Origin: Candidatus Heimdallarchaeota archaeon
GTDB taxonomy: Archaea > Asgardarchaeota > Heimdallarchaeia > JABLTI01
NCBI GenBank assembly: GCA_019894765.1
Contig: JAGXNT010000086.1
Coordinates: forward strand, 1 to 8,825
DNA: 8,825 nt
Direction: 5' to 3'
Both the position numbers and the translations under genes were made by a program. Positions 1 through 8,825 of this stretch are shown here, one piece after another. The first letter of the stretch is position 1, and the number at the start of each line of letters is the position of its first letter. The notes below the pieces were generated by a model. The model saw only the letters and a list, made by a program, of their open reading frames with translations. It was not told the origin of the DNA and made no database searches.

Positions 1-1466
1 ACAGATGCCGGTGTTGCTAATATTTTATTTTCTGATACTAACGCTGCTGCAGTGTATTGGGGCATCATGAAACCACTATTCAAACCTAATTCACTGCGCG
101 GAATCAAAAAGAGACTTAGTCCATCATTTCTTTTATCATCAATTAGTTTCGCACATCTTCTCTCTGAAATGTTTCCAACTTCAGCCATTGCTATTGACAA
201 ATAATCCATAACCATAGCAATTGGTTCACCATGGAAATTACCACCAGAGTAAATGTCAAATTCTAATGGATCTTTATTGGTAATGAAAATTAGTGGATTA
301 TCAGTAGCGGCATTAATTTCTCGAGAGATGGTATCACAGCAATGAACCAATGTTTCTCTTACTGGACCCAAAACTTGTGGAATGCACCTTATGGAGTAGT
401 CATCTTGTATTTTTGGCCACTGCTTTTCAAAATCATTCTTTGAACCCCCACAATTCGGACAATTCCAATCATCTGGTAATTTGATAAATTCAGTGTTTGG
501 AGGTATATTTTGTGAAGGATCACCCATTTTCCTATCATAGTAATACCCACAATTCTCTATTTCACATGTGTATAAACTTTCATGCTTTTTCACAAAGACA
601 CTGTCTTTTGTATGGGCTCGAAGGTTTTTGGCTACCTCTATTTGTCCTGGGTGAAATCTTGCTTGATGGATTCTATCATCAAATTGCTGACTGGCTGCTT
701 TGAGAGCTTCTAATGATAATGCTGCTGCAATTTCTGCATTCTTGATTAAATTACTGGCTTCTTGTAAAACTATACATGCAATTCCAGTTGAATATTGAGC
801 ACCATTATTTAGAGCTAAGCCTTCTTTATATGATAATTTTGTAATTGGAATCCCTGCTTTTTGCATGCCTTCCTTAGCATTGTATATTTTCCCTTCGTAT
901 TTCAGGTTCTTTTCTCCTTCACCTATCATTGCAAGAGCCATATGTGATAATTGTGCTAAATCGCCACTAGCACCAACAGATCCCTTTATTGGTATTATTG
1001 GTAAAACGTTTTTGTTTATCATTTGTATGAGGTTCTCTAAGGTTTCCAGTTGGCAACCGGAATTTCCTCGGGCAAGTGCTGTAACCCGGAGCACCATCAT
1101 TGCTTTAACAAAATCATCTCGAGCAGGTTCACCTACACCAACGCAATGACTTCTTATCAGATTGGTTTGTAATGCAGTAGCATCTTTTTCCGGAATAACA
1201 ATATCTCTTAGTGCGCCAAAACCAGTAGTAATACCATAGATTTTTTCACCTGATTCTACAGCTTTCAAAATAGCTTTTCGAGCTAAGATTACTTTTTCTT
1301 TCACATTTTTAGAAAGTTTGAGTTGGTGATCATTTTTCACAATATTGATTACATCTTCTAATGTTAGTCCTTCATTATCAAGAATTACTGTTTCTAGCAA
1401 GAGCTTCTTCACTCCAAGGATTTTTCTCCGTATTCGTGTTGGTTTATAACTTCCACATTTAAACAT
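1..1466 (-). CDS. hutH: Histidine ammonia-lyase with inserted rubredoxin-like domain (3' end cut by window edge)
   Basis: Removes ammonia from L-histidine to give urocanate, the first step of histidine degradation, using an MIO cofactor formed from an internal Ala-Ser-Gly. About 488 codons are visible, read from the ATG at 1466 with no stop down to base 1. Seen: YGITTGFG at about residues 77-84, NLIRSHCVGVG at 102-112 (the Ser-His pair is typical of HAL rather than Tyr or Phe lyases), the MIO triad A166-S167-G168 followed by DLA, a YSIRC motif, and PQYTAAALVSENK near the visible end (the Glu is also HAL-like). Odd: residues about 290-352 are an extra block with C301-x4-C306-GY and C336-PN-C339-GG plus the rubredoxin-like DPSQNIPP and LPDDWNCP segments. 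The gene lies 57 nt after the ubiquitin-like operon, behind a T-rich tract, and is probably functionally unrelated to it. A GTG within the first 20 codons is a possible later start. The lyase assignment is firm; histidine specificity is inferred. Confidence 0.88.
   Translation of the reverse strand, partial: MFKCGSYKPTRIRRKILGVKKLLLETVILDNEGLTLEDVINIVKNDHQLKLSKNVKEKVILARKAILKAVESGEKIYGITTGFGALRDIVIPEKDATALQTNLIRSHCVGVGEPARDDFVKAMMVLRVTALARGNSGCQLETLENLIQMINKNVLPIIPIKGSVGASGDLAQLSHMALAMIGEGEKNLKYEGKIYNAKEGMQKAGIPITKLSYKEGLALNNGAQYSTGIACIVLQEASNLIKNAEIAAALSLEALKAASQQFDDRIHQARFHPGQIEVAKNLRAHTKDSVFVKKHESLYTCEIENCGYYYDRKMGDPSQNIPPNTEFIKLPDDWNCPNCGGSKNDFEKQWPKIQDDYSIRCIPQVLGPVRETLVHCCDTISREINAATDNPLIFITNKDPLEFDIYSGGNFHGEPIAMVMDYLSIAMAEVGNISERRCAKLIDDKRNDGLSLFLIPRSELGLNSGFMMPQYTAAALVSENKILATPAS
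410..600 (-). other. Rubredoxin-like metal-binding domain inserted in the ammonia-lyase
   Basis: This domain-level feature lies inside the ammonia-lyase reading frame. Four cysteines (C301, C306, C336, C339 of the visible protein) form two knuckles, CX4CGY and CPNCGG. Thirty residues separate the second and third cysteines, the same step as between Cys9 and Cys39 of classical rubredoxins. The intervening segment has the family features: aromatic residues after the first knuckle, GDPxxxIPPxT, and LPDDWNCP before the second knuckle. The first knuckle has four rather than two residues between cysteines, a spacing known in some variant rubredoxins. It could bind Fe or Zn. The frame is intact through both junctions, so it looks like a true insertion and not an assembly join. 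Confidence 0.8.
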
Positions 1467-1523: not shown

Positions 1524-1841
1524 TTATTGTCTTTGTTTTATTCGTTTTCTTTTTATGAATTCCTTTTCCTTGAAATGCAGATAGCATTTTAGATAAGGTG
1601 AAAAATTAGGTGGTATTACTTCTTTGATTTCCATGTCTTTTTCTGAGATGATTTTTATGGTACTTGGTTTCCTTGGTTCTTCTTCCTTCTCCTCTATAAA
1701 CTCCTCTTCATCAAAAATTTCTTCTATGGATTCAACTTTACTTGTTGTTGAGCTCACTTCATAAGTGAACTCCAAAGACTCTTCATTTTCTTTGGAGTCA
1801 GTTTCATTCTCAGTTGTGGTTTCAACTTTCTTGTCTTTCAT
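1524..1841 (-). CDS. Small acidic hypothetical protein coupled to the E2 gene
   Basis: 105 residues, family not recognised. Residues 1-58 are rich in Glu, Thr and Ser and look disordered, with a strongly acidic run at 40-55 (EEIFDEEEFIEEKEEE). Next comes a short hydrophobic strand TIKII at 61-65, which matches strands repeated in the tail of the preceding E2. The C-terminal 40 residues contain VIPPNFSPYLKCYLHF (75-90) and end in a basic segment, KRKRIKQRQ. The ATG overlaps the E2 stop codon as ATGA, and a strong AAGGAGG...GTGAGG ribosome-binding stretch lies within the last E2 codons, so translation is coupled. No catalytic motif is visible. The shared strand motif and coupling suggest an accessory factor that binds the modifier or the E2. 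That is inference. Confidence 0.72.
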   Translation of the reverse strand: MKDKKVETTTENETDSKENEESLEFTYEVSSTTSKVESIEEIFDEEEFIEEKEEEPRKPSTIKIISEKDMEIKEVIPPNFSPYLKCYLHFKEKEFIKRKRIKQRQ

Positions 1842-2512
1842 ATAATCCTCACTCCTCCTTTCTTTTTCTCCTCTTCTTTCTCATCTCGAGGTATAATCTT
1901 TACAGTAGTTCCTTTATCCTCAGTATCTACTTTTTCTTCCTTTTCTGTTCCAATAATTCTAATTCCTCCACTGTCTTTTATTGACACTTTTTCATGGAGA
2001 CCATCCCATTTTGTTAGCATTAATTTGTGGGTATTATCGGCGTCTTTCTCAAACCATCTCATTGCAATGGTATTCGTTCCTGAGTCTTCCTTCGGGAATA
2101 GTTTTGGAGGGCGAATTCTTTTTGGATCCATTAGGATGTGGTAGAGAATATCAATGAGTATTCTATCTACTTCTCCATTCACGGTTATGCATGCTTCACC
2201 GTAACTACCTGTTGATATCCTTGGATGCCATAACCTTGTTATTGCTCTCATTTTGATGTTTGAAAGATTTGCAGGATATTCTCTGGGGAGAAAAATTGAG
2301 AATTTGTGATCGTTACTCATATTCAATTGTTTTCTATTGGCTGATTGTCCTACTAATCCTGGAGTTCTTCTCATAGTGAAGAGGATATCGCGATAAGCAC
2401 CATCATTGTATTTTCCCTTTATTTCTACAGTGTAGTCTTCCTGAACCCACTTATCGCCTGATTGTTTATGTGGAGTCCATTTCCAGCCTTTCTTTTTGAA
2501 GAAATCTTCCAT
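1838..2512 (-). CDS. E2-like ubiquitin-conjugating (UBC-fold) enzyme with extended charged tail
   Basis: Expected to take the ubiquitin-like modifier from the E1 as a thioester and pass it to targets. Residues 1-155 look like a UBC core: a β-sheet region with KFSIFLPREYP at 70-80 (the FxLxFPxxYP-like strand), WHPRI at 95-99 (equivalent to the HPN box), and GEACI at 105-109, where C108 is the probable catalytic cysteine. A helical region follows. A Trp-containing stretch ends the core near 170. Residues 175-224 form a Lys/Glu-rich tail with three short strands, GGIRII (182-187), TVKII (203-207) and GGVRII (219-224, the exact C-terminus). The ATG used here has no ribosome-binding site; the frame stays open for 25 codons upstream to an ATA preceded by GAAGGTG, so the true start may be at 2587. 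Assignment rests on the HP box, the cysteine and the neighbouring E1, Ubl and JAMM genes. Confidence 0.85.
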   Translation of the reverse strand: MEDFFKKKGWKWTPHKQSGDKWVQEDYTVEIKGKYNDGAYRDILFTMRRTPGLVGQSANRKQLNMSNDHKFSIFLPREYPANLSNIKMRAITRLWHPRISTGSYGEACITVNGEVDRILIDILYHILMDPKRIRPPKLFPKEDSGTNTIAMRWFEKDADNTHKLMLTKWDGLHEKVSIKDSGGIRIIGTEKEEKVDTEDKGTTVKIIPRDEKEEEKKKGGVRII

Positions 2513-2587
2513 TGACTCATAGAAAACAGAAATTGATTCAGCTATCCTAGCATTTACTACAGTAGATGGAAAATATGTTCTCGCTAT

Positions 2588-2600
2588 TTTTTACACCTTC
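2588..2600 (-). promoter_or_regulatory. Shine-Dalgarno stretch GAAGGTG in front of an in-frame ATA codon
   Basis: GAAGGTG occupies 2594-2600 on the minus strand, followed by a 6-nt spacer and then ATA at 2585-2587 in frame with the E2. The same AAGGTG core, with 7-10 nt spacing, precedes the ubiquitin-like gene's ATG. There is no comparable site before the E2 ATG at 2512. It suggests initiation at a non-standard codon, or a start codon lost by mutation or sequencing error. Confidence 0.4.
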
Positions 2601-2642
2601 GTTTTTCATTTAATCTTAACTAGAAGCGGAGATGTTGAAACT

Positions 2643-2660
2643 ACTATCCGTATTGATAGT
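2643..2660 (-). repeat. Stem-loop after the ubiquitin-like gene
   Basis: A perfect 6-bp inverted repeat ACTATC-6 nt-GATAGT begins 29 nt after the modifier stop codon, in the unusually long spacer before the E2. No T-run follows closely, so it is not a classical intrinsic terminator. It may be an RNA-processing or stability element. With only 6 bp it could be chance; its weight comes from two similar elements on the other side of the same gene. Confidence 0.35.
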
Positions 2661-2689
2661 GAATTCCAACCCGCTCAGTTCAATAGCTA

Positions 2690-3001
2690 TTATCCTACTT
2701 GAGCACAAGCGTCTAATTTGAAACGTTCATTTGATTCCAATGCAGGCTCTAGTGACCCAAAGGTTGCAGCTGGAGGTAATGCTGTGTTTCCAGTCATTTT
2801 TCTCATCATGATAAAGCTAACATTAGGTTGGCCGACCTTTTCCTTAGCCCACTTATTGATATCGACTCCTTCATCGATGCATCTTTGCACTAGTGTCTTT
2901 ACTACTTCGTCTATTGTTGATTCTTCCTCAACAGCTACACGAAATTCTTTTTGTCTTGGCTCAACATCTATTATGACTTCTCGCCATATTTCTTCGCTCA
3001 T
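2690..3001 (-). CDS. Ubiquitin-like β-grasp modifier ending in Val-Gly
   Basis: 103 residues, the probable protein modifier of the cassette. Seen: a β-hairpin at about 8-25 (REVIIDVEPRQKEFRVAVEE), a helix at about 28-44 (STIDEVVKTLVQRC), a strand FIMMRKMTG at 63-71, the turn LPPAATFGSL at 75-84, and a final strand RFKLDACAQVG at 93-103. This is the order expected of a β-grasp fold. It ends in a single glycine preceded by valine, not Gly-Gly, and has no extension beyond it, so no maturation cut would be needed. UFM1 in eukaryotes also matures to Val-Gly. The gene lies between the E1 and E2 genes and has the best ribosome-binding site in the operon (AAGGTGTGA, 7 nt before the ATG). Sequence similarity to ubiquitin itself is not evident; the call rests on predicted fold, size and neighbours. 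Confidence 0.75.
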   Translation of the reverse strand: MSEEIWREVIIDVEPRQKEFRVAVEEESTIDEVVKTLVQRCIDEGVDINKWAKEKVGQPNVSFIMMRKMTGNTALPPAATFGSLEPALESNERFKLDACAQVG

Positions 3002-3008
3002 TATTTGT

Positions 3009-3017
3009 TCACACCTT
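3009..3017 (-). promoter_or_regulatory. Ribosome-binding site of the ubiquitin-like gene
   Basis: AAGGTGTGA on the minus strand, 7 nt before the ATG at 3001. It is close to the archaeal anti-SD complement (GGAGGTGA) and fixes the start of the modifier gene. Confidence 0.7.
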
Positions 3018-3033
3018 AGTTATATTCATGCTT

Positions 3034-3050
3034 GATGCTATCTCAGCATC
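3034..3050 (-). repeat. Stem-loop in the E1-Ubl spacer (proximal to Ubl)
   Basis: Perfect inverted repeat GATGCT-5 nt-AGCATC, 33 nt before the Ubl start codon. Together with the neighbouring stem-loop at 3060-3077 it fills most of the 78-nt spacer between the E1 stop and the Ubl start. Likely an RNA element that affects processing, stability or translation of the modifier; this is inference. Confidence 0.42.
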
Positions 3051-3059
3051 TTTAGTACT

Positions 3060-3077
3060 ACATCAGGCATCTGATGT
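3060..3077 (-). repeat. Stem-loop just after the E1 stop codon
   Basis: Perfect 7-bp inverted repeat ACATCAG-4 nt-CTGATGT, starting two bases after the E1 stop codon. A tetraloop on a 7-bp stem should be stable in RNA. No U-run follows, so rho-independent-style termination is not suggested; a cleavage or transcript-end stabilising function is more likely. Confidence 0.45.
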
Positions 3078-3079
3078 GG

Positions 3080-4021
3080 TTACCGATCTGAGATTTTATT
3101 TGTTCTTCTTCTTGCTCTGCATGTTACATCTACACATTTATGATTTGGTAAAATGTTTCCGAAAATCATTTCATGATTTCTCAAGTCATACCTAATCATT
3201 TTACCGAAATTAGGTTCTTGACCTTTGGTAACATCCGAGTATTCGCCTTTTCCATCACTACTTACCAGTACTTTCGTTGCTTCCACAGACATTATTCCCC
3301 CAACAATTGAAGTTAAAGTACTAATCATTGGGAATTTTGGTAATGTTTCCACAAAGAATTCATCACAGCTTAGAACCACTTGATGATTCATAATTGCTTG
3401 ATAGTAATCCTCACTCCATAAGCAGACTGCACAAGCAGTGATTCCTGGATGATAGATTTGAGCTTCAATGAAAGACTTGCCCATTGCGCCATTAATCATT
3501 GGTACTGTTTTTTCTTGCATTAAATTGCCATAATTTAACATATATCTTGCATAATCGTTATCTAATGCCATTATGATTAGATCAACTTGATACACTTCTT
3601 GTGGTGCTTCCTCTATTCGAACTTCATAAGGGGTTACTTTTGTATTCGGAGCAATTTCTGGTAATCTTTCAGCTACCGCATTTACTTTGGAAATGTTCTT
3701 GTGGTCACCAGGTCTGAAGAAAATGCATCTGTTTATGTTAGATTTGTTTACAATATCAAAATCAACGAGTTTGATATGTCCCACACCAAGCATTCCTAGG
3801 TTTTTGCAGATTTCGTTCCCTACCGCTCCCGCACCCACACATAATATAGTACTATTCTTTATTTTCTGCAGATTCTCTTTACCGAAGTATCTTCTAGTTC
3901 TATCCTCAATATCCTCTTCAAAGAAACCAACACTTAGCAATTCTTTCTCTTTCGCAGAATTGTGTGACACACTATCCGCTTGGTGAGTGCTTTTTTTCTG
4001 TGTTAATTCTTTGTTTTCCAT
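3080..4021 (-). CDS. E1-like (ThiF/UBA-fold) modifier-activating enzyme
   Basis: Adenylates the C-terminus of the ubiquitin-like protein and forms a thioester for transfer to the E2. 313 residues: a disordered N-terminus (1-40), then the ThiF/E1 adenylation domain. Seen: nucleotide loop GAGAVG at 63-68, DFDIVNKSNINR at 87-98 (acidic residues and Arg of the ATP site), K112 in a GxxK-type helix, ALDN at 152-155, CAVC at 197-200, and KCVDVTC at 295-301. The last two are the probable zinc pairs, the second being CX4C as in UBA5 rather than CX2C. C219 in VVLSCDEFF aligns with the cysteine of MoeB/MOCS3-type enzymes before the SIVGGIMSVEATKVL helix and is the likely thioester cysteine. It is a single-lobe enzyme, so it should work as a homodimer. 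The start ATG lies 18 nt after the JAMM stop codon. Confidence 0.92.
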   Translation of the reverse strand: MENKELTQKKSTHQADSVSHNSAKEKELLSVGFFEEDIEDRTRRYFGKENLQKIKNSTILCVGAGAVGNEICKNLGMLGVGHIKLVDFDIVNKSNINRCIFFRPGDHKNISKVNAVAERLPEIAPNTKVTPYEVRIEEAPQEVYQVDLIIMALDNDYARYMLNYGNLMQEKTVPMINGAMGKSFIEAQIYHPGITACAVCLWSEDYYQAIMNHQVVLSCDEFFVETLPKFPMISTLTSIVGGIMSVEATKVLVSSDGKGEYSDVTKGQEPNFGKMIRYDLRNHEMIFGNILPNHKCVDVTCRARRRTNKISDR

Positions 4022-4039
4022 ATTCTCACATCAATGTAT

Positions 4040-4699
4040 TTATTTTACAGTATATTCTATCCAGTCAACTTCTTCGAGGTCTTTTACTCCGTTTTCATTA
4101 ACAACAATATAGGATTTATAGTAATTTGATCTAGGATCTATTAACACAAACACATTATGCTCAGCATCATATGGAAAGTTCAAAAACGTGTTATAATCAG
4201 TTGATGAGAAATGTGGGTTGGAACCAAAAGGATGGGAATGAAAAATGCCAACTATTTTTGGACGATTTTCACTTTCTCCGTATTTTTCTTCAATAATTGT
4301 TGTATACTGTCTTACACCTTCTGGAGTAAATTCTGCATAAGCGTGACTTGAATATGCTTTCCCGGTAACCCAATCAACAACCTTTACGTACTTCTTTCCT
4401 TTGTATTGATACTTGTATCCAAGTAAAATCCCAATTGCCTCGTTAGGATCTGATTTTTTACATAGTAACAGTGTTTCATAAACTACTCTTTGTAAAATAT
4501 AAACAGGATAAATTCCTTCTATTTGATCCTCTCTTAATTTGTCTGTTTTAGATTCTTCCTTAATCATCCTCTTTTGTGTTAATTCACTCTTTTTTTCGAT
4601 TTTTTTTGGGGGTTCTTCCGGTTCTCCTAAAAGCTTACCAAGATGATTCTTTGAGGGGTTCTTTTCAGAATCTTTTTTGTCTTTCTTCATGTTCTCCAC
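4040..4699 (-). CDS. JAMM/MPN+ metalloprotease, probable modifier-removing isopeptidase
   Basis: Zinc peptidase expected to cut the ubiquitin-like protein from its targets. The JAMM centre is complete: E87 (in NEAIGILLG), H154 and H156 in the HSHP box, S165 and D168. The spacing is HxH-x8-S-x2-D, one residue longer than the usual x7 of Rpn11-type proteins. The catalytic domain spans about residues 60-219. Residues 1-60 are a Lys/Glu/Pro-rich, probably disordered tail, which may dock the enzyme on the SMC or E1 proteins. Because the modifier already ends at its glycine, this enzyme is more likely a deconjugase than a precursor-processing enzyme. Start uncertain: GTG at 4699 or ATG at 4690 (GGAG lies just before the ATG). 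It is 16-25 nt behind the zinc-finger gene. Confidence 0.92.
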   Translation of the reverse strand: MENMKKDKKDSEKNPSKNHLGKLLGEPEEPPKKIEKKSELTQKRMIKEESKTDKLREDQIEGIYPVYILQRVVYETLLLCKKSDPNEAIGILLGYKYQYKGKKYVKVVDWVTGKAYSSHAYAEFTPEGVRQYTTIIEEKYGESENRPKIVGIFHSHPFGSNPHFSSTDYNTFLNFPYDAEHNVFVLIDPRSNYYKSYIVVNENGVKDLEEVDWIEYTVK

Positions 4700-4715
4700 T
4701 CATTTCTCTGATGGT

Positions 4716-5201
4716 TTAACCAATTTTTTCCCAGGTGATGAACTTACCGCGTCTTCTCTTAGTCATAACGAAACCGAAGGAAGACCAAATCTCTTCTTGA
4801 ATTTTGGGAGGTTCAAGATTTAGCTCATCGTCTTTTTCCTCTTCTTCTGCTTTCTTCTCTACAGCAGCATAAAAGGGCATAAAGCCCATTTGTTCATCTT
4901 CAAAAAATAATGCCTCTAATAATCCACCTGTTATTCCTTCTGATTTATTGGTTTCAACAAATAGCATTACTTCTTCAATTGGTATTGGTCCAGGACTTAA
5001 TTGATGCCTATCAATTCCGAAAATAAAAGACGGACAAGCTCCCGTCATTTTCAAATCGAATTCCTGAATACATTTTGGACATATGAATGTTCTACAAATT
5101 CTACACATGCGCCAACCGGCATCAACAGCTTCCCTTAAGGTAGCACGACCATTGTGTCCAGCACAACGAATCGATACTGTTGAAGTTGTTATTACAGCCA
5201 T
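4716..5201 (-). CDS. Small Cys/His zinc-finger protein, candidate E3 ligase or SMC-complex subunit
   Basis: 161 residues. The N-terminal 66 residues hold eight possible zinc ligands: C13, H16, C33, C36, C41, C44, C56 and H66. Three are clear pairs (C-AG-H, C-RI-C, C-PK-C). The C-x2-H ... C-x2-C-x4-C-x2-C pattern resembles B-box or RING-like cross-brace fingers, though the 16-residue gap after H16 is longer than in classical B-boxes. The rest contains GPIPIEEVMLFVE and an acidic stretch (116-124, EEEEKDDEL), and ends in a basic-aromatic segment. Archaeal ubiquitin operons of the Caldiarchaeum type carry a small RING finger protein, so this may be the E3 of the cassette. Placed right after the kite-like gene, it could also correspond to the zinc-finger half of Nse1. 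The finger is seen; E3 activity is inferred. Confidence 0.72.
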   Translation of the reverse strand: MAVITTSTVSIRCAGHNGRATLREAVDAGWRMCRICRTFICPKCIQEFDLKMTGACPSFIFGIDRHQLSPGPIPIEEVMLFVETNKSEGITGGLLEALFFEDEQMGFMPFYAAVEKKAEEEEKDDELNLEPPKIQEEIWSSFGFVMTKRRRGKFITWEKIG

Positions 5202-5207
5202 TTTTCG

Positions 5208-5215
5208 CTACCTTC
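5208..5215 (-). promoter_or_regulatory. Ribosome-binding site GAAGGTAG of the zinc-finger gene
   Basis: GAAGGTAG on the minus strand, 6 nt before the ATG at 5201. The identical octamer precedes the next upstream gene, which supports both starts. Confidence 0.6.
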
Positions 5216-5225
5216 TAGTTTATTT

Positions 5226-5852
5226 TTAGAGCAACATTCCCTCAGTTCTATCTGCGATTTCCTTTCTTCTTTCAGGTGCGATTTCGATTTTTGTTCTAGC
5301 ACCGTATCTTATCTTGTTCCCACCTCTTCTAATATAACCAGTTGAATCCAAGGTTCGCAGAATTCTAGTCAAAGAATATTCCGAATAATACCCTCTCTTC
5401 ACTAAGCGATCGAATAGGATGGTTGAAGTTATAGGTAATTCTTCTCTTCTTCGGTTGTCTGTGGTTTTTTCTATAAGATAAATTATTGTTCCGAGTACTG
5501 CTTGCTCATCTAGTGATAATTCATTAGGGACAACGTGTATTGATCTTAAACAATACCAGACTTCATTATCCTCAACATAGGAGATTAATTCTAGACCGAG
5601 TCGTTTTACGTTTCTTCCGAAATCTTCCAACAATGTTTCAAGTTCGAGAAGAGTTACCCCTGTTTTGTTTCTTAATTGCCTTTTAGACACACCAAAAGCC
5701 AATGAACCATTTTCTCTTCGCCATCTTGATGTTAAAGCAAGGAATAATTGAGGATCAATTTCACCGAAATCCTCCTCTAATCGCTCTCTTACATCATTGA
5801 GTGATCTTTTTTCGACTTCTTCATTATCGTTATCTGATTGATTTTCAATCAT
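5226..5852 (-). CDS. Tandem winged-helix 'kite'-like SMC-associated protein (ScpB/Nse1/Nse3-like)
   Basis: 208 residues. After an acidic N-terminus (1-15), two winged-helix modules can be outlined: about 20-105, ending in a strand pair (LISYVEDNEVWYCLRS), and about 110-195, starting LSLDEQAVLGTIIYLIE. The pattern of helix, wing, aromatic strand and then 'LS..E....I..I' is that of kite proteins (ScpB, MukE, and Nse1/Nse3 of Smc5/6), which dimerise and bind the kleisin linker. The layout recalls the N-terminal part of eukaryotic Nse1, where a 'YxL' strand is followed by a 'fxExELxLF' helix, but it lacks the Nse1 RING. The next gene supplies a separate zinc finger. It follows the candidate kleisin by 21 nt, as scpB follows scpA in bacteria. 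The start has a good GAAGGTAG site. Fold is fairly confident, family membership is inferred. Confidence 0.68.
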   Translation of the reverse strand: MIENQSDNDNEEVEKRSLNDVRERLEEDFGEIDPQLFLALTSRWRRENGSLAFGVSKRQLRNKTGVTLLELETLLEDFGRNVKRLGLELISYVEDNEVWYCLRSIHVVPNELSLDEQAVLGTIIYLIEKTTDNRRREELPITSTILFDRLVKRGYYSEYSLTRILRTLDSTGYIRRGGNKIRYGARTKIEIAPERRKEIADRTEGMLL

Positions 5853-5856
5853 TTTT

Positions 5857-5864
5857 CTACCTTC
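5857..5864 (-). promoter_or_regulatory. Ribosome-binding site GAAGGTAG of the kite-like gene
   Basis: GAAGGTAG on the minus strand, 4 nt before the ATG at 5852. It is the same octamer as before the following gene. Confidence 0.6.
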
Positions 5865-5873
5865 TTTTCTTCT

Positions 5874-6737
5874 TTATTTTCCGACTGCTTTTTTTGGAGT
5901 AATTACAATTGATTGATTGATTAGTTCAAGCTCATCAATCTTCCCAGAAGCAGTTTGCATAAGAACGATTTCAATTGAATTTTTTCCTGTTCGTAAAAGC
6001 ACTATTTGTTTTTCTCTTACTAATAGTGAGATTAAATCCGCTGAAATGCTGTCGATTTTACTCTCAAGTTCAGATATTATGAATTGCTTTCCACCAAATC
6101 TCTTCAAGAATTCCTTTTTCAAGACTTCTTTTTGTTCTTTTGTTAATCTGCGTAATGGCAGCGTCTCCATTATCGCTATACCCTTCCCCTCTAAGATATT
6201 ATCTTCGATGAGTAATTCTTTCTCATCTCCTTCAATGATCTGAACGCCACTTACTTCATGTAGATTAAACATATCCATATCAAGTGTATTATCTCCAGGC
6301 ATGAACATGATTGCATTAGTTCGAATCTTCACTTCCCAAGCAATCATTCGTAAACGATCTCTTTCAGTTGTTCCTTCTAAAGCCACCTTAGAATCTCTTG
6401 TCATTTGCATTTTCGTAAGAGATTGGTATACTCGAGCATCTAACTCTCTGTGTCTTTTATTTGCAACGTATAGATATGCATCAGAAACCTCTATTCTATC
6501 CTCTTCACTTTCAGCTATTTGTGGAACAGTACCTTTGTCAAGTAAAGTCTTGTACTTCTTCGCTATATTCCATAGTATTTTCTCGATTCCATCCACTGAA
6601 TGATGCTTGTTAGTTTTCTTTTTATCAGGATCTTTTTTTGATTTTGATTTATCAGAAGATTTACCCGAACTTTCTTCTTTAGCTGAAGAATCCGAAGAGG
6701 ATATTTCTATTTCAATATCATTATTGTCTTCTAACAT
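5874..6737 (-). CDS. Candidate kleisin-type SMC partner (Nse4/ScpA-like by position)
   Basis: 287 residues, family not recognised by motif. Residues 1-48 are a disordered tail: acidic-serine first, then a basic KSKSKKDPDKKK run. Residues about 50-150 are predicted helical (VDGIEKILWNIAKKY, YLYVANKRHRELDARVYQSL, RLRMIAWEVKIRTNAI). A middle linker (about 150-195) is rich in hydrophobic and acidic residues. Residues about 200-262 look like a winged helix: EQKEVLKKEFLKRFGG, FIISELESKI, ADLISLLVREKQIVLL, then a wing with SIEIVLM. Helical N-terminus, linker and C-terminal winged helix is the kleisin layout, and the gene lies between an SMC gene (17-nt overlap) and a kite-like gene, the usual place for a kleisin. 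No Nse4 signature motif could be identified, so it might instead be another winged-helix subunit. Confidence 0.5.
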   Translation of the reverse strand: MLEDNNDIEIEISSSDSSAKEESSGKSSDKSKSKKDPDKKKTNKHHSVDGIEKILWNIAKKYKTLLDKGTVPQIAESEEDRIEVSDAYLYVANKRHRELDARVYQSLTKMQMTRDSKVALEGTTERDRLRMIAWEVKIRTNAIMFMPGDNTLDMDMFNLHEVSGVQIIEGDEKELLIEDNILEGKGIAIMETLPLRRLTKEQKEVLKKEFLKRFGGKQFIISELESKIDSISADLISLLVREKQIVLLRTGKNSIEIVLMQTASGKIDELELINQSIVITPKKAVGK

Positions 6738-8825
6738 GTTCAGCTTTTACCACCTTCATCTCAGAAACAACCATATGATGGATGTTATCTGATATATCAA
6801 CATCTAAAGCATCTGGGCAAAGAAGAATAAATTGCGGAACAAAACGAGAATTTTCTCCTGCAAGTTTCTGTGTTCTCACAGCAATACTGAATGCGAGTGC
6901 TTTATTCTTCTCATCTAATCTCTGTGTGAACTCGTCTATTGCATGTATTGGTGAATCAGTTAGAGTATGCATTGCTAAAATTAATCCTTCAATTGCGAGA
7001 ACTTTCTCTCCACCGCTTAATTCTCGAAAATCACGATATGCTTTCCCTTTTGTAATTGCTTCAATATATAGACCAGCTTCATCAGGTTTATTGATGTTCG
7101 TTACTTTCAATCTTATTTTCTCAAATATTCCTCCTAATAGGAGTTTCATTGAACGAGTTATATTAGTAACAACCTCTTGTAATTCCCCATTCCAAAATGC
7201 TAGTCTTGCTTCTAAATCAGCTCGAAGATTTGTAATGTGTTCTTCTCTTTCCACCATATATACTTTCAAAGATTCAACTTTCACTTTCTGAGCATCAATT
7301 TTATCTTCATCTACATTACTAATTCCTATAGAATCCAAATGACCTTCAATTCGATTTAATTCGTCCCTAATTTCAGTGTAATTTCTGATCTCTTCTGGTC
7401 GTTCCCCTTTTTGTTTTGCTCTAGCCTCTCGCTCATTCTTTTCTTGTAAATGTGATTCATATTCAGCATCAAAATTTAACTCGAGTGTAAGGAGTCGTGT
7501 TGATTTCTCTGTTAAACTATGAGCTTCGATTCGAAGTAATTCGATTGTTTCTTTAATGTCCTCGATATTTCTATTCACTTCTCTCTTTTTCATGGAGTAA
7601 GTGGCAAAATCATCTTCTGCTTCATCAAGTTCTATTTTCAATCCATTCTGATGGATTATGTATTCTTGTGTTTTCGCTTCGATTGTAGCAATAATTTCGT
7701 TTATGGTTTCGATTTTGCCCAAGATCTTCTCGTCAGGCATTCCTAATGCTTGGATTTCCTGGTGTAGCTTTGTTATTTCTTTGAGTGTTTTTATCTCGTC
7801 GATTTTTAGGTCTCTTGTTTCCTTTTCTAGTCGTGCGATAGAAACTCTAGTTTTTCTTTCATTAATTACCTCTGTGTAGTATTTTTCTTCTGAGGTTTTT
7901 ATCTTCCAACCAAATGAGTTCTTCATTGGTGCAGGAGGTCTACCAAATCCACCATGTGATAGGTAGTAGCTATTGCCAGATTTTGTTAAGATATTTATTC
8001 GTGAATCTCGAGCGATATTTGTTAAAGTATTAGGATCATATTTGTCTTCAGCAACACCAGCTTTCACAACTCTTTTCAGAAAACCTATTGCATAAGGATC
8101 ACCTGATAGAAGATTACTAGCAATATCATGAACTTCTTTGTAAACTGGTTTCTTGAGCCTTTCATCCGCCTTTTTAGCATCTTCCGCAGTTACTTTGTAG
8201 ACAGAAATTGGTGGTTTCCATCGTGGCCATGTTTCATCATATAATCTCTTTGCAAATCTATAAGCTTCATCAGTTTTTGCCAAAAAGGCATAGAGATTAC
8301 GACCAACGAGGTTTTTGACTGCTTTTCCCCAAGTTTCCGATCCTTCCTTAATTTCAATTAAGGAAATTATTGGACCAATTATTTCTTTGCCCAAAGATTG
8401 TCTTCTAATTTTATGATAGAATATCTTTGCAGAGTTAGTTAGATCTTCCTCAAATTTAGTCAATCGTTGCCCGGAAAATGTTTCTTCATCAGAAGAAAAA
8501 GAATCATAATGTGGTTCAACAATTATCCTTCTTTTATGAATTTCAAGTTCTTTATCAGCATTGGAGTATTTTTCTTGTATAATAGATAACTTCTTCATTT
8601 TTACTGCAAGAGCTTCTTGTCTATCTTGGAGCTTTTTGTCTTTTTCACTTAAGTTTTTAGTAGCAATGATTTTCTCCATAGCACTTTTTTGCTCATTGTA
8701 ACGATCAACCTCTTTTCTAAAATTCGCAACATTTTCTTGATCATTTTGGATTTGTGCTTCTTTTGTGATTAACTTTCTATTCTTTATTCTCTCTTGTTCT
8801 TCCACTAAATCCAATTCTTCTTCTA
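6721..8825 (-). CDS. Smc5/6-like SMC ATPase (5' end beyond the window)
   Basis: The open frame continues past base 8825; the TTG at 8814 is not a likely start. About 700 residues are visible (numbered from that TTG): end of the first coiled coil (1-120), hinge (about 125-315, with GPIISLIEI at 147-155 and WGKAVKNLVGRNLYAF at 162-177), second coiled coil (about 315-550), and the C-terminal ATPase lobe with signature LSGGEK (599-604) and Walker B AIDEF with D627 and E628. Three features favour Smc5/6 over canonical SMC: the Smc6-like GPI..IEI...W..A hinge entry, the D-loop region DEFTQRLD (compare DEFDVYMD of Smc6 and DEINQGMD of Smc5), and FILLCPD where canonical SMCs have the ITH histidine and Smc5/6 have TP. 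The Walker A lobe and part of the first arm lie upstream; from the length of the second arm the full protein should be roughly 1,000-1,100 residues. It loads or moves on DNA through ATP-driven head closure. Confidence 0.88.
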   Translation of the reverse strand, partial: EEELDLVEEQERIKNRKLITKEAQIQNDQENVANFRKEVDRYNEQKSAMEKIIATKNLSEKDKKLQDRQEALAVKMKKLSIIQEKYSNADKELEIHKRRIIVEPHYDSFSSDEETFSGQRLTKFEEDLTNSAKIFYHKIRRQSLGKEIIGPIISLIEIKEGSETWGKAVKNLVGRNLYAFLAKTDEAYRFAKRLYDETWPRWKPPISVYKVTAEDAKKADERLKKPVYKEVHDIASNLLSGDPYAIGFLKRVVKAGVAEDKYDPNTLTNIARDSRINILTKSGNSYYLSHGGFGRPPAPMKNSFGWKIKTSEEKYYTEVINERKTRVSIARLEKETRDLKIDEIKTLKEITKLHQEIQALGMPDEKILGKIETINEIIATIEAKTQEYIIHQNGLKIELDEAEDDFATYSMKKREVNRNIEDIKETIELLRIEAHSLTEKSTRLLTLELNFDAEYESHLQEKNEREARAKQKGERPEEIRNYTEIRDELNRIEGHLDSIGISNVDEDKIDAQKVKVESLKVYMVEREEHITNLRADLEARLAFWNGELQEVVTNITRSMKLLLGGIFEKIRLKVTNINKPDEAGLYIEAITKGKAYRDFRELSGGEKVLAIEGLILAMHTLTDSPIHAIDEFTQRLDEKNKALAFSIAVRTQKLAGENSRFVPQFILLCPDALDVDISDNIHHMVVSEMKVVKAEHVRRQ

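What the first reader, a model, noticed from the sequence alone, without database searches (positions are those of the whole stretch)
1524..8825. One operon joins an Smc5/6-like SMC complex to a complete ubiquitin-like conjugation pathway
Seen: nine minus-strand genes with overlaps or short gaps, encoding an SMC, candidate kleisin, kite-like winged-helix protein, zinc finger, JAMM isopeptidase, E1, Ubl, E2 and a small E2-coupled protein. Known: of the eukaryotic SMC complexes, Smc5/6 carries built-in ubiquitin (Nse1) and SUMO (Nse2) ligases, and it restricts extrachromosomal viral DNA; bacterial SMC-type Wadjet systems restrict plasmids, and bacterial Ubl-E1-E2-JAMM (BIL-type) operons act against phage. 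Inference: this is a prokaryotic SMC complex with a dedicated modifier pathway, possibly ancestral to the Smc5/6-ligase association or a defence system built from the same parts.
Basis: partly seen in the sequence, partly recalled or inferred. Interest (0 to 1): 0.94.

Follow-up and report, generated by a model that had tools for sequence, protein, structure and literature searches.

The report
Asgard SMC machine with private ubiquitin
In Asgard archaea, one gene cluster encodes an SMC protein related to eukaryotic SMC6 beside a RING-like zinc finger, a predicted ubiquitin-like tag and the enzymes predicted to attach and remove that tag, so it is likely a prokaryotic counterpart of the Smc5/6 machine that would tag proteins on DNA.

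Summary
In detail: nine minus-strand genes (1524-8825) form one operon. The SMC profile matches SMC6 best (9.6e-41; canonical Smc 8.9e-25, SMC5 5.7e-17) and groups with eukaryotic SMC6 in a tree without SMC5. The winged-helix family is kite-like, the zinc finger RING-like by ligand pattern. E1, E2 and JAMM keep candidate catalytic residues. The Ubl has a near-invariant Val-Gly near its end (52 of 54 sequences).

Of 227 genomes of the phylum, 48 have the SMC6-like gene and 19 the Ubl, all within the 48. JAMM orthologues occur in those 19. In 18 of 19 an SMC-block gene shares a contig with a Ubl-block gene, in two arrangements and at least two classes. The other 29 have no Ubl hit. Eight of nine genomes of the window's clade carry a separate ubiquitin, so this would be a second modifier.

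New here: a transglutaminase-fold gene belongs to the module (39 genomes, all with the SMC block), and a short hydrophobic motif recurs in tails of three Ubl-block proteins.

Coupling is inferred; nothing was tested biochemically. The kleisin is unproven. Ancestry to Smc5/6 is possible but not shown. A defence role lacks positive support.

The parts
6721..8825 (-). SMC6-like SMC ATPase, C-terminal 700 residues (N-terminal head beyond the window)
   Evidence: LSGGEK signature at residue 602 and 'IHAIDE' at 626; Walker A present in full-length L004; profile best PDB match SMC6, 9.6e-41
5874..6737 (-). candidate kleisin (287 aa), overlaps SMC by 17 nt
   Evidence: between SMC and kite in clades A-E; no Pfam, PDB or ScpA-type match, so identity is inferred from position only
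5226..5852 (-). kite-like winged-helix protein
   Evidence: family hhalign to Asgard ScpB 86.7% over 136 columns; other family members hit MksE (4 of 36), SMC_Nse1 (3 of 36), MAGE (2 of 36), all below cut-off; 11 of 36 hit MarR_2 (best 2.5e-6); the window protein itself only HTH_12 0.012
4716..5201 (-). RING-like zinc finger with its own C-terminal module, SMC-block subunit and candidate E3
   Evidence: pattern C13/H16, C33/C36, C41/C44, C56/H66; six of these eight positions invariant in 21 rows; weak best PDB matches RNF4 and other RING ligases; match in 40 of 227 genomes of the phylum
4040..4699 (-). JAMM metalloprotease, predicted Ubl isopeptidase
   Evidence: Prok-JAB 7.2e-9; E87, H154, H156, S165, D168 invariant in 8 rows; orthologue-level in the Ubl genomes
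3080..4021 (-). E1-like activating enzyme
   Evidence: ThiF 3.1e-40; invariant C219 (candidate catalytic Cys) and C197/C200/C296/C301 (candidate zinc site) in 9 rows; best PDB match UBA6 1.5e-27
2690..3001 (-). ubiquitin-like modifier, ends ...AQVG
   Evidence: VG kept in 41 of 43 aligned rows and in all 11 further database hits; members weakly hit YukD, RA and PI3K_rbd; highest identity to relatives of the ten window proteins
1838..2587 (-). E2-like conjugating enzyme; ORF from ATG is 1838-2512, probable true start near 2587
   Evidence: invariant C108 in HPR...G.AC context in 10 rows; upstream in-frame conserved N-terminus; UQ_con 0.0035, below cut-off
1524..1841 (-). small acidic protein, overlaps E2 by 4 nt; carries one STIKII motif
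   Evidence: conserved beside E2 in clades A and B; similar 121-aa gene after E2 in one clade D genome
3..1466 (-). aromatic amino acid lyase with inserted rubredoxin domain (neighbour, probably not part of the machine)
   Evidence: PF00221 2.5e-152 and PF00301 4.4e-17; directly downstream in all five named relatives, not in the clade B loci

Best explanation
This operon encodes an SMC6-like SMC protein together with its own predicted ubiquitin-like modifier pathway, and the products likely act as one machine: an SMC-kleisin-kite ring that would entrap DNA, with a RING-like subunit that would bring the charged E2 to proteins at the ring. Inferred steps: the SMC dimer, kleisin candidate and kite form an ATP-driven DNA-holding ring. 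The Ubl, ending in a bare Val-Gly in the window and its close relatives and with extra residues after it in many others, is activated by the small E1 and passed to Cys108 of the E2. The zinc finger docks the E2 on the ring. Subunits of the ring, or proteins on the held DNA, are tagged, and the JAMM enzyme removes the tag. A transglutaminase-fold protein encoded nearby in relatives, outside the window, is an extra module member, perhaps a protease. The likely role is chromosome maintenance or repair rather than defence. Shown by sequence: gene content, conserved linkage, co-occurrence, conserved candidate catalytic residues and SMC6 affinity. Not shown: any interaction, conjugation or phenotype.
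For: SMC: a profile of 13 relatives hits SMC6 at 9.6e-41 over nearly its full length, a second SMC6 (9lwi) at 8.4e-34, canonical Smc at 8.9e-25; the first eukaryotic proteins in a 5.8-billion search are SMC6 (5.7e-39), just ahead of named canonical SMC (4.5e-36 and 1.8e-35); tree support 99/95 for Asgard SMC6-like plus eukaryotic SMC6; Pfam hinge found in one relative at 7.5e-6, no CxxC hook in the four checked. Kite. RING-like finger. Conjugation: candidate catalytic residues invariant; VG kept in 52 of 54 Ubl sequences. Coupling: SMC6-like at 1e-40 in 48 of 227 genomes; Ubl in 19, all within the 48 (hypergeometric 5e-15, relatedness ignored); JAMM at 1.2e-42 or better in 18 of those 19 and in no other genome, and cut by a contig end in the 19th; E1 at 2.8e-92 or better in 18 of the 19 and in no other. 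An SMC-block gene and a Ubl-block gene share a contig in 18 of 19 (15 by the Ubl, 3 by the JAMM alone), as a single operon in clade A and divergent in clade B, which lies outside clade A's class. Second modifier: ubiquitin PF00240 has a match elsewhere in 8 of 9 clade A genomes, 55 of 58 of the class.
Against: 29 of the 48 SMC6-like genomes have no Ubl hit, so the SMC block does not need this pathway. In G059 SMC, Ubl, JAMM and E1 are on four different short contigs. At E up to 1e-10 the JAMM profile also matches 22 further genomes (about 1e-11 to 1e-17), and the cut copy in G058 scores no better than those. SMC5 (5.7e-17) scores below Smc and below SMC4, SMC3 and SMC1 chains, so the affinity is to SMC6 only. 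The kleisin has no detectable homology to kleisins. The RING assignment is nowhere significant, other zinc families hit too, and one ligand is Asp in the clade B SMC-block copies. MarR_2 scores better than any kite family on kite members, and the Nse1 hits are in clades D and E, not in the window protein.
Confidence: 0.6

Rival explanations
1. It is a defence system: the SMC complex would recognise foreign DNA, as Wadjet or Lamassu do, and the Ubl pathway would tag viral or plasmid proteins, as bacterial Bil-type systems do.
For: The parts resemble defence parts: the E1 hits PADLOC E1-E2 models (8.5e-19), the JAMM hits JAB models (2.2e-8), the SMC hits LmuB (7.1e-20 in L004, 1.8e-21 in L047) and JetC (6e-6 in L004, 4.6e-11 in L047).
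Against: The same SMC family hits SMC6 at 9.6e-41; PADLOC is a defence library, so its nearest SMC-like model is bound to be a defence one. Kleisin, kite, zinc finger, Ubl and E2 of L004 hit no PADLOC model at 0.01; neighbouring genes were not scanned. One Ubl match per genome, Ubl 95% identical to L004, same neighbours in all five named relatives; most clade C genomes have no canonical SMC hinge or ScpB match, and in G013, on a 3.33 Mb contig, the only hinge match is this SMC.
Confidence: 0.17
2. The two blocks are neighbours without biochemical coupling: the SMC block is a stand-alone SMC complex and the Ubl pathway modifies unrelated proteins or carries sulfur.
For: The SMC block occurs without a Ubl hit in 29 of 48 genomes; in clade D the Ubl-E2 pair is on another contig; E1 and JAMM are related to those of other Asgard operons that hold a ubiquitin gene.
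Against: The Ubl is not seen outside SMC6-like genomes (19 of 19) and linkage survives a rearrangement between classes. The zinc finger of the SMC block and the second zinc finger of the Ubl block are related in sequence (about 1e-5 to 1e-6; alignment). Sulfur carriage would not explain an E2 with a conserved cysteine.
Confidence: 0.18
3. The zinc finger is a structural or DNA-binding subunit and not a ligase; the second zinc finger (beside the Ubl genes in clade B, some kilobases downstream in clade A) is the only E3.
For: The SMC-block finger persists in clade C without Ubl, and in clade B one ligand is Asp while the second finger keeps all eight.
Against: In clade A it sits directly before JAMM-E1-Ubl in the operon, with all eight ligand positions filled.
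Confidence: 0.3

Closest known systems
Eukaryotic Smc5/6 complex (SMC6, Nse4 kleisin, Nse1-Nse3 kites, Nse1 variant RING)
   Same: SMC6-like motor, kite-like gene followed by a RING-like finger gene, link to a ubiquitin-type pathway; Nse1 ligase activity with Ubc13/Mms2, stimulated by Nse3 and Nse4, is reported (PMC8750328, abstract and passages)
   Different: One SMC gene per cluster, one kite, RING-like finger as a separate gene, no Nse2-like SUMO ligase among the window proteins; the modifier, E1, E2 and protease are encoded in the same cluster
Archaeal ubiquitin operon (Caldiarchaeum; Asgard JAMM-E1-E2-ubiquitin)
   Same: Ubl, E1, E2, small RING finger protein and Rpn11/JAMM encoded together; JAMM matures and deconjugates there (PMC5654768, abstract and passages)
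   Different: Modifier here ends in a single Val-Gly and has no profile match to Asgard ubiquitin; linked to SMC genes; coexists with a ubiquitin match in 8 of 9 clade A genomes
[quoted passage not shown]
   Same: Archaeal SMC proteins that group with SMC5 and SMC6
   Different: 'ubiquitin' has 0 occurrences in PMC9389158; whether these exact genes were in that set is unknown, as the 2021 paper is not held
Wadjet (JetABCD), Lamassu and Bil-type bacterial systems
   Same: SMC-kleisin-kite operon (Wadjet, PMC10586767 passages) or Ubl-E1-E2-JAMM operon (Bil, recalled)
   Different: No known system recalled or seen in my search listings joins the two; JetC matches are weak and only partial, LmuB is the best PADLOC model for the SMC

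Membership tests
Eukaryotic-type Smc5/6 complex | SMC subunit of the SMC5/6 branch with a hinge | tested here: met
   SMC6 best in profile search; tree 99/95 with eukaryotic SMC6; SMC_hinge 7.5e-6 in the relative G013 only, 0.11 in the window protein. SMC5 not sampled in the tree and low in the profile search.
Eukaryotic-type Smc5/6 complex | Two different SMC proteins, SMC5 and SMC6 | tested here: not met
   One SMC6-like gene in each of five clade A genomes, in two pieces in G002; a second SMC6-like paralogue seen in clade D.
Eukaryotic-type Smc5/6 complex | Kleisin Nse4 | tested here: inconclusive
   No kleisin family at E up to 5 in PDB or up to 10 in Pfam. hhalign to Asgard ScpA-type proteins 0.5% or less, but those were taken by position beside canonical SMC, PF02616 rings in 1 of 58 genomes, and the two reference sets match each other at only 25.5%, so this test is weak.
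Eukaryotic-type Smc5/6 complex | Two kites, Nse1 and Nse3 | tested here: inconclusive
   One kite-like gene; family members weakly hit SMC_Nse1 (clades D, E), MAGE and MksE (clade C) and ScpB (clade D) models.
Eukaryotic-type Smc5/6 complex | RING fused to a kite (Nse1) | tested here: not met
   Kite and RING-like finger are adjacent but separate genes in clades A-D; in the clade E loci no finger follows the kite.
Eukaryotic-type Smc5/6 complex | SUMO ligase Nse2 | tested here: not met
   No SP-RING match among the ten window proteins by Pfam; the genomes were not searched for it.
Ubiquitin-like conjugation pathway | E1, E2 and JAMM with conserved catalytic residues | tested here: met
   the roles of the residues are recalled from the families.
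Ubiquitin-like conjugation pathway | Modifier with beta-grasp fold and C-terminal glycine | tested here: inconclusive
   VG kept in 52 of 54 sequences; fold supported only by weak YukD/RA/PI3K_rbd matches; structure prediction off.
Archaeal ubiquitin operon | Ubiquitin ending in Gly-Gly | tested here: not met
   Val-Gly; hhalign to Asgard ubiquitin 0.4%.
Wadjet | JetC SMC (DUF3584/MukB-like) and JetD nuclease | tested here: not met
   JetC models match only partially: 6e-6 for L004, 4.6e-11 for L047; no JetD among the ten proteins scanned.
Anti-phage Ubl system (Bil-type) | Protection against phage | not testable with these tools
   Needs an experiment.

The most novel reading that the evidence does not exclude
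The kite gene followed by the RING-like gene is a 'split Nse1', and this Asgard cluster is a living prokaryotic form of Smc5/6: the marriage of an SMC6-type ring to ubiquitin-type conjugation was made before eukaryotes, first with a private single-glycine modifier docked through hydrophobic motifs, and Smc5/6 inherited the arrangement.
Probability: 0.3. Interest if true: 0.95.

Novelty: new variant of a known kind. Interest (0 to 1): 0.86.

Why it matters
Smc5/6 is the eukaryotic SMC complex with built-in ubiquitin and SUMO ligases, and why an SMC machine should carry ligases is open. A prokaryotic SMC6-type operon that carries its own modifier, E1, E2, protease and RING-like subunit gives a small system in which that question can be reconstituted from about ten proteins, in the archaeal group thought closest to eukaryotes. 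It also points to a second modifier in Asgard archaea beside ubiquitin, which matters for the history of ubiquitin-like proteins with a single C-terminal glycine.

Tried and rejected
Considered and rejected. Rad50 identity of the SMC: no CxxC hook in the four relatives checked, SMC hinge found in one, Rad50 at 6e-8 or weaker in PDB. MoaD/ThiS-type sulfur carrier: the pathway has an E2 with invariant cysteine and a JAMM protease. The idea that the transglutaminase-fold gene exists only where the Ubl has a tail: rejected, because clade A also has it, 8 to 42 kb from the Ubl where both are on one contig, and some clade B-like Ubls have no tail. ScpA-type kleisin: no match, by a weak test. AU tests of groupings without eukaryotic SMC6 plus the Asgard group were uninformative (p 0.26 and 0.27), because the alternatives move two long-branch rows along; one of those rows, P0101, looks canonical by PDB search. 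SMC5 and SMC1-3 could not be placed in the tree because no sequence came into reach; one plant SMC row is unidentified. Before the tree I dropped seven rows of the first tree (L120, P0142, two oomycete SMC6, L044, L122, one Thermococcus SMC) and the two Rad50 rows, and added three. The motif test is post hoc: I saw the motif first, then counted it in chosen rows (8 of 12 E2 tails, 4 of 9 second-finger tails, 5 of 11 small proteins). Ubl alignment A9 took 32 of the 43 database hits; the 11 left out were read later. A last search with the winged-helix family found 60 relatives, none labelled eukaryotic.
Full report
What is there. Nine minus-strand ORFs run from the window's right edge to 1524 with two overlaps, five gaps of 16-78 nt and one of 177 nt. 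Part of the largest gap belongs to the E2: its frame stays open to about 2590 and encodes an N-terminus seen in relatives, without ATG, GTG or TTG. The window cuts the SMC, whose relative L004 has 1001 residues. Downstream, 57 nt away, lies an aromatic amino acid lyase gene with a rubredoxin insert.

Where it comes from. No genome is held for the window. One scan of genome contigs with the E1 gave five loci in the same order as far as the contigs reach: three with all nine genes, L002 starting within the SMC, L003 within the zinc finger; all five have the lyase. Four are named Candidatus Heimdallarchaeota and one 'Asgard group archaeon'. I call this clade A (nine genomes: G001-G005, G060-G063).

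Distribution. In 227 genomes of the phylum of G004 the SMC-block zinc finger has a match in 40, the SMC6-like gene at 1e-40 in 48 (four of these, G087, G090, G177 and G179, match less well or in part), and the Ubl in 19. The JAMM profile at 1e-10 matches 41: 18 Ubl genomes at 1.2e-42 or better, the 19th (G058) at 3.4e-12 with the gene cut by a contig end, and 22 others at about 1e-11 to 1e-17. The E1 profile at 1e-40 matches 22: 18 of the 19 at 2.8e-92 or better (G058 missing) and four others at 1e-41 to 1e-45. In three other genomes where a JAMM-E1 pair lies beside a ubiquitin-like gene (L229, L237, L238), no SMC6-like match was in the 15-16 kb read. All 19 Ubl genomes are among the 48. The hypergeometric chance is 5e-15, but related genomes are not independent. 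SMC and Ubl share a contig in 14 of 19, some SMC-block gene and the Ubl in 15, and some SMC-block gene and some Ubl-block gene in 18; the last three (G058, G062, G063) rest on the JAMM. These were counted by hand from the places; the exception is G059, where the genes lie on four short contigs. No completeness was told for any genome, so absences may be gaps.

Arrangements. Clade A: one operon. Clade B (eight genomes, G064-G071, missing from the 58-genome class of G004; one close Ubl is named Hermodarchaeota): SMC-kleisin-kite-finger on one strand, Ubl-E2-small protein-second finger-transglutaminase-fold gene divergent from it, then E1 and JAMM (some loci are cut by contig ends). Clade D (G058, G059): SMC-kleisin-kite-finger-JAMM at a contig end in G058, and Ubl-E2 on another contig with a transglutaminase-fold gene. 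Clade C (most of G011-G034): SMC block, no Ubl hit. Clade E (G035-G037): SMC-kleisin-kite in the two loci read, no finger behind the kite, no Ubl hit. So the SMC block is wider than the Ubl link; the data do not say whether clades C and E lost the pathway or never had it.

The SMC. A profile of 13 relatives finds SMC6 first in the PDB (9.6e-41 over nearly the full length; a second SMC6, 9lwi, 8.4e-34), ahead of canonical Smc (8.9e-25) and SMC4 (5.4e-21); SMC5 comes lower (5.7e-17), after SMC3 and SMC1 chains. Among 7990 scored proteins the first eukaryotic ones are SMC6 (5.7e-39), ahead of a Hodarchaeota protein (4.5e-36) and Thermococcus SMC (1.8e-35). Three unnamed metagenome proteins stand between them and the Asgard group, and one 71% identical protein is labelled Candidatus Glassbacteria, probably mis-binned (the 120 best were listed). 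In a PMSF tree of 45 head-and-hinge rows, 26 Asgard-type rows (some from unnamed metagenomes) and seven eukaryotic SMC6-type rows (two unnamed) form one group (99/95), with the Asgard-type rows a group inside it (98/94). SMC5 is absent from the tree, and the eukaryotic SMC6 rows entered because the Asgard query found them. The first trees, one of them with Rad50 as outgroup, agree in outline with weaker support. Nine of nine clade A genomes also have canonical SMC (hinge 6.6e-32 or better) and ScpB. In clade C a canonical hinge matches only in G018 and G019, ScpB only weakly in G025, and in G013, on a 3.33 Mb contig, the only hinge match is this SMC.

Partners. The winged-helix family matches Asgard ScpB by hhalign (86.7%, 136 columns), while the other eleven comparisons in that run gave 0.5% or less. 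Its members weakly hit MksE (4 of 36), SMC_Nse1 (3), MAGE (2) and ScpB (1), but also MarR_2 (11, best 2.5e-6) and other winged helices. The three Nse1 hits are in clades D and E; the window protein hits only HTH_12 (0.012). The finger has C-x2-C/H, C-x2-C, C-x2-C and C-x8-9-H; seven columns are invariant in 21 rows, six of them ligands. In PDB at E up to 1, 9 of 13 hits are RNF4, TRIM21 or Hakai, best 0.015. In Pfam 9 of 21 members hit IBR, 6 C1, 5 zf-Sec23_Sec24, 5 a zinc ribbon and 4 zf-UDP RING (best 7.7e-5); the window protein hits none. The kleisin candidate has no supporting match.

The conjugation pathway. E1: invariant C219 plus a C197-C200-C296-C301 set. E2: invariant C108. JAMM: invariant E87, H154, H156, S165, D168. 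The role of these residues is recalled from the families. Ubl: of 43 aligned rows (window, 10 loci, 32 of 43 database hits) 41 carry VG, 14 of them with nothing after it and the rest with 1-11 variable residues; P0033 is truncated and P0043 diverges at the end. The 11 hits left out all carry VG, with 0 to 53 residues after it. The Ubl is the most conserved protein compared: 95% to L004 and 87% to L043, against 78% and 59% for the SMC. Its fold is inferred: 18 of 43 members hit YukD (best 0.014), four RA and four PI3K_rbd; that these are beta-grasp folds is recalled. It does not match Asgard ubiquitin by hhalign. Ubiquitin (PF00240) has a match in 55 of 58 genomes of the class, 53 over the cut-off, and in 8 of 9 clade A genomes at other places (clade B was not searched), so this would be a second modifier. 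JAMM maturation and deconjugation are described for the Caldiarchaeum system (PMC5654768, abstract and passages).

Two additions. First, a transglutaminase-fold protein with an invariant Cys-His-Asp set (sharing the fold, 158 of 227 genomes match at 1e-15) has orthologue-level matches (E up to 1e-80) in 39 genomes, all with the SMC block (37 by the SMC, G018 and G026 by the finger). On the 26 contigs shared with the SMC it lies within 16 kb in 25. It sits beside the second finger in clade A (G060, G005, G002 looked at) and clade B, and beside Ubl-E2 in clade D. Second, a [VIT][KR][IV][IL] motif recurs in E2 tails (13 in 8 tails, 0.39 expected), second-finger tails (4 in 4, 0.12) and small proteins (3 in 5, 0.15), never reached in 2000 shuffles, but not in SMC-block finger tails (0 in 6, 0.17). 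The likeness to SUMO-interacting motifs is recalled; the rows were chosen and the motif defined after seeing them.

Literature. The listings of searches showed no title or abstract joining an archaeal SMC to a ubiquitin-like pathway. PMC9192718 (passages) has no 'SMC'; PMC1779556 (term search) has none either. PMC7203096 holds all four words Asgard, ubiquitin, SMC and kleisin, but only the first 300,000 of 769,434 characters are held and there 'kleisin' and 'ubiquitin' do not occur, so it is not excluded. PMC9389158 (passages) describes 'SMC5/6-related' archaeal SMC. PMC8750328 (abstract and passages) reports Nse1 ligase activity, with Nse4 as a substrate. PMC10586767 (passages) was used for Wadjet and Lamassu. 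The library holds open-licence papers only, so the claim is limited to it.

Verdict. The parts and their linkage are real and conserved; the joint mechanism is inferred. It works like Smc5/6 with a private modifier, but is not filed as a member: a second SMC and a fused Nse1 were tested and not met.

Noticed in passing
window 3-1466 (-); L004:12505-14361, L004:18011-19534: Aromatic amino acid lyase with a rubredoxin domain inserted (residues 299-346), downstream of the operon in clade A, with a second lyase and, in L042, a histidyl-tRNA synthetase-like gene nearby.
   Followed up: partly
L047:1580-3181 (-), L083:2438-3745 (+), L084:35-1489 (-), L058:16594-18198 (-): Transglutaminase-fold gene with a Cys-His-Asp set that belongs to the SMC/Ubl neighbourhood in clades A-D; outside the window.
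   Followed up: yes
window 1524-2512 (-); L047:3171-3566 (-): Repeated hydrophobic-basic-hydrophobic-hydrophobic motif in E2 tail, small protein and second zinc finger tail; looks like a shared docking motif.
   Followed up: partly
P0040, P0042, P0044, P0046 (metagenome Ubl hits): Four Ubl relatives carry a related 37-53 residue extension after VG that resembles by eye the N-terminus of the E2; they may be Ubl-E2 fusions or remnants on short contigs.
   Followed up: no
L134, L135, L136; L232:7390-10563 (-), L235:1840-5055 (-): A second SMC6-like paralogue in G058 (and fragments in G059); the G058 copy groups with 1057-1071 aa SMCs of G087 and G090; possibly a partner SMC.
   Followed up: partly
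L212-L216: In G047, G051, G054, G056 and G057 two adjacent ScpB-like kites (about 187 and 365-430 aa) lie near an SMC-family gene and a gene of kleisin size, with an 800 aa gene between.
   Followed up: no
clade C genomes, e.g. G013 (L057): Most clade C genomes have no match to ScpB or to a canonical SMC hinge, so the SMC6-like complex may be their only SMC complex.
   Followed up: partly
L047:10367-11347 (-): A histone-deacetylase-family gene lies convergent with the SMC block in clade B, one ORF away; ORFs of similar size are there in other clade B loci.
   Followed up: no
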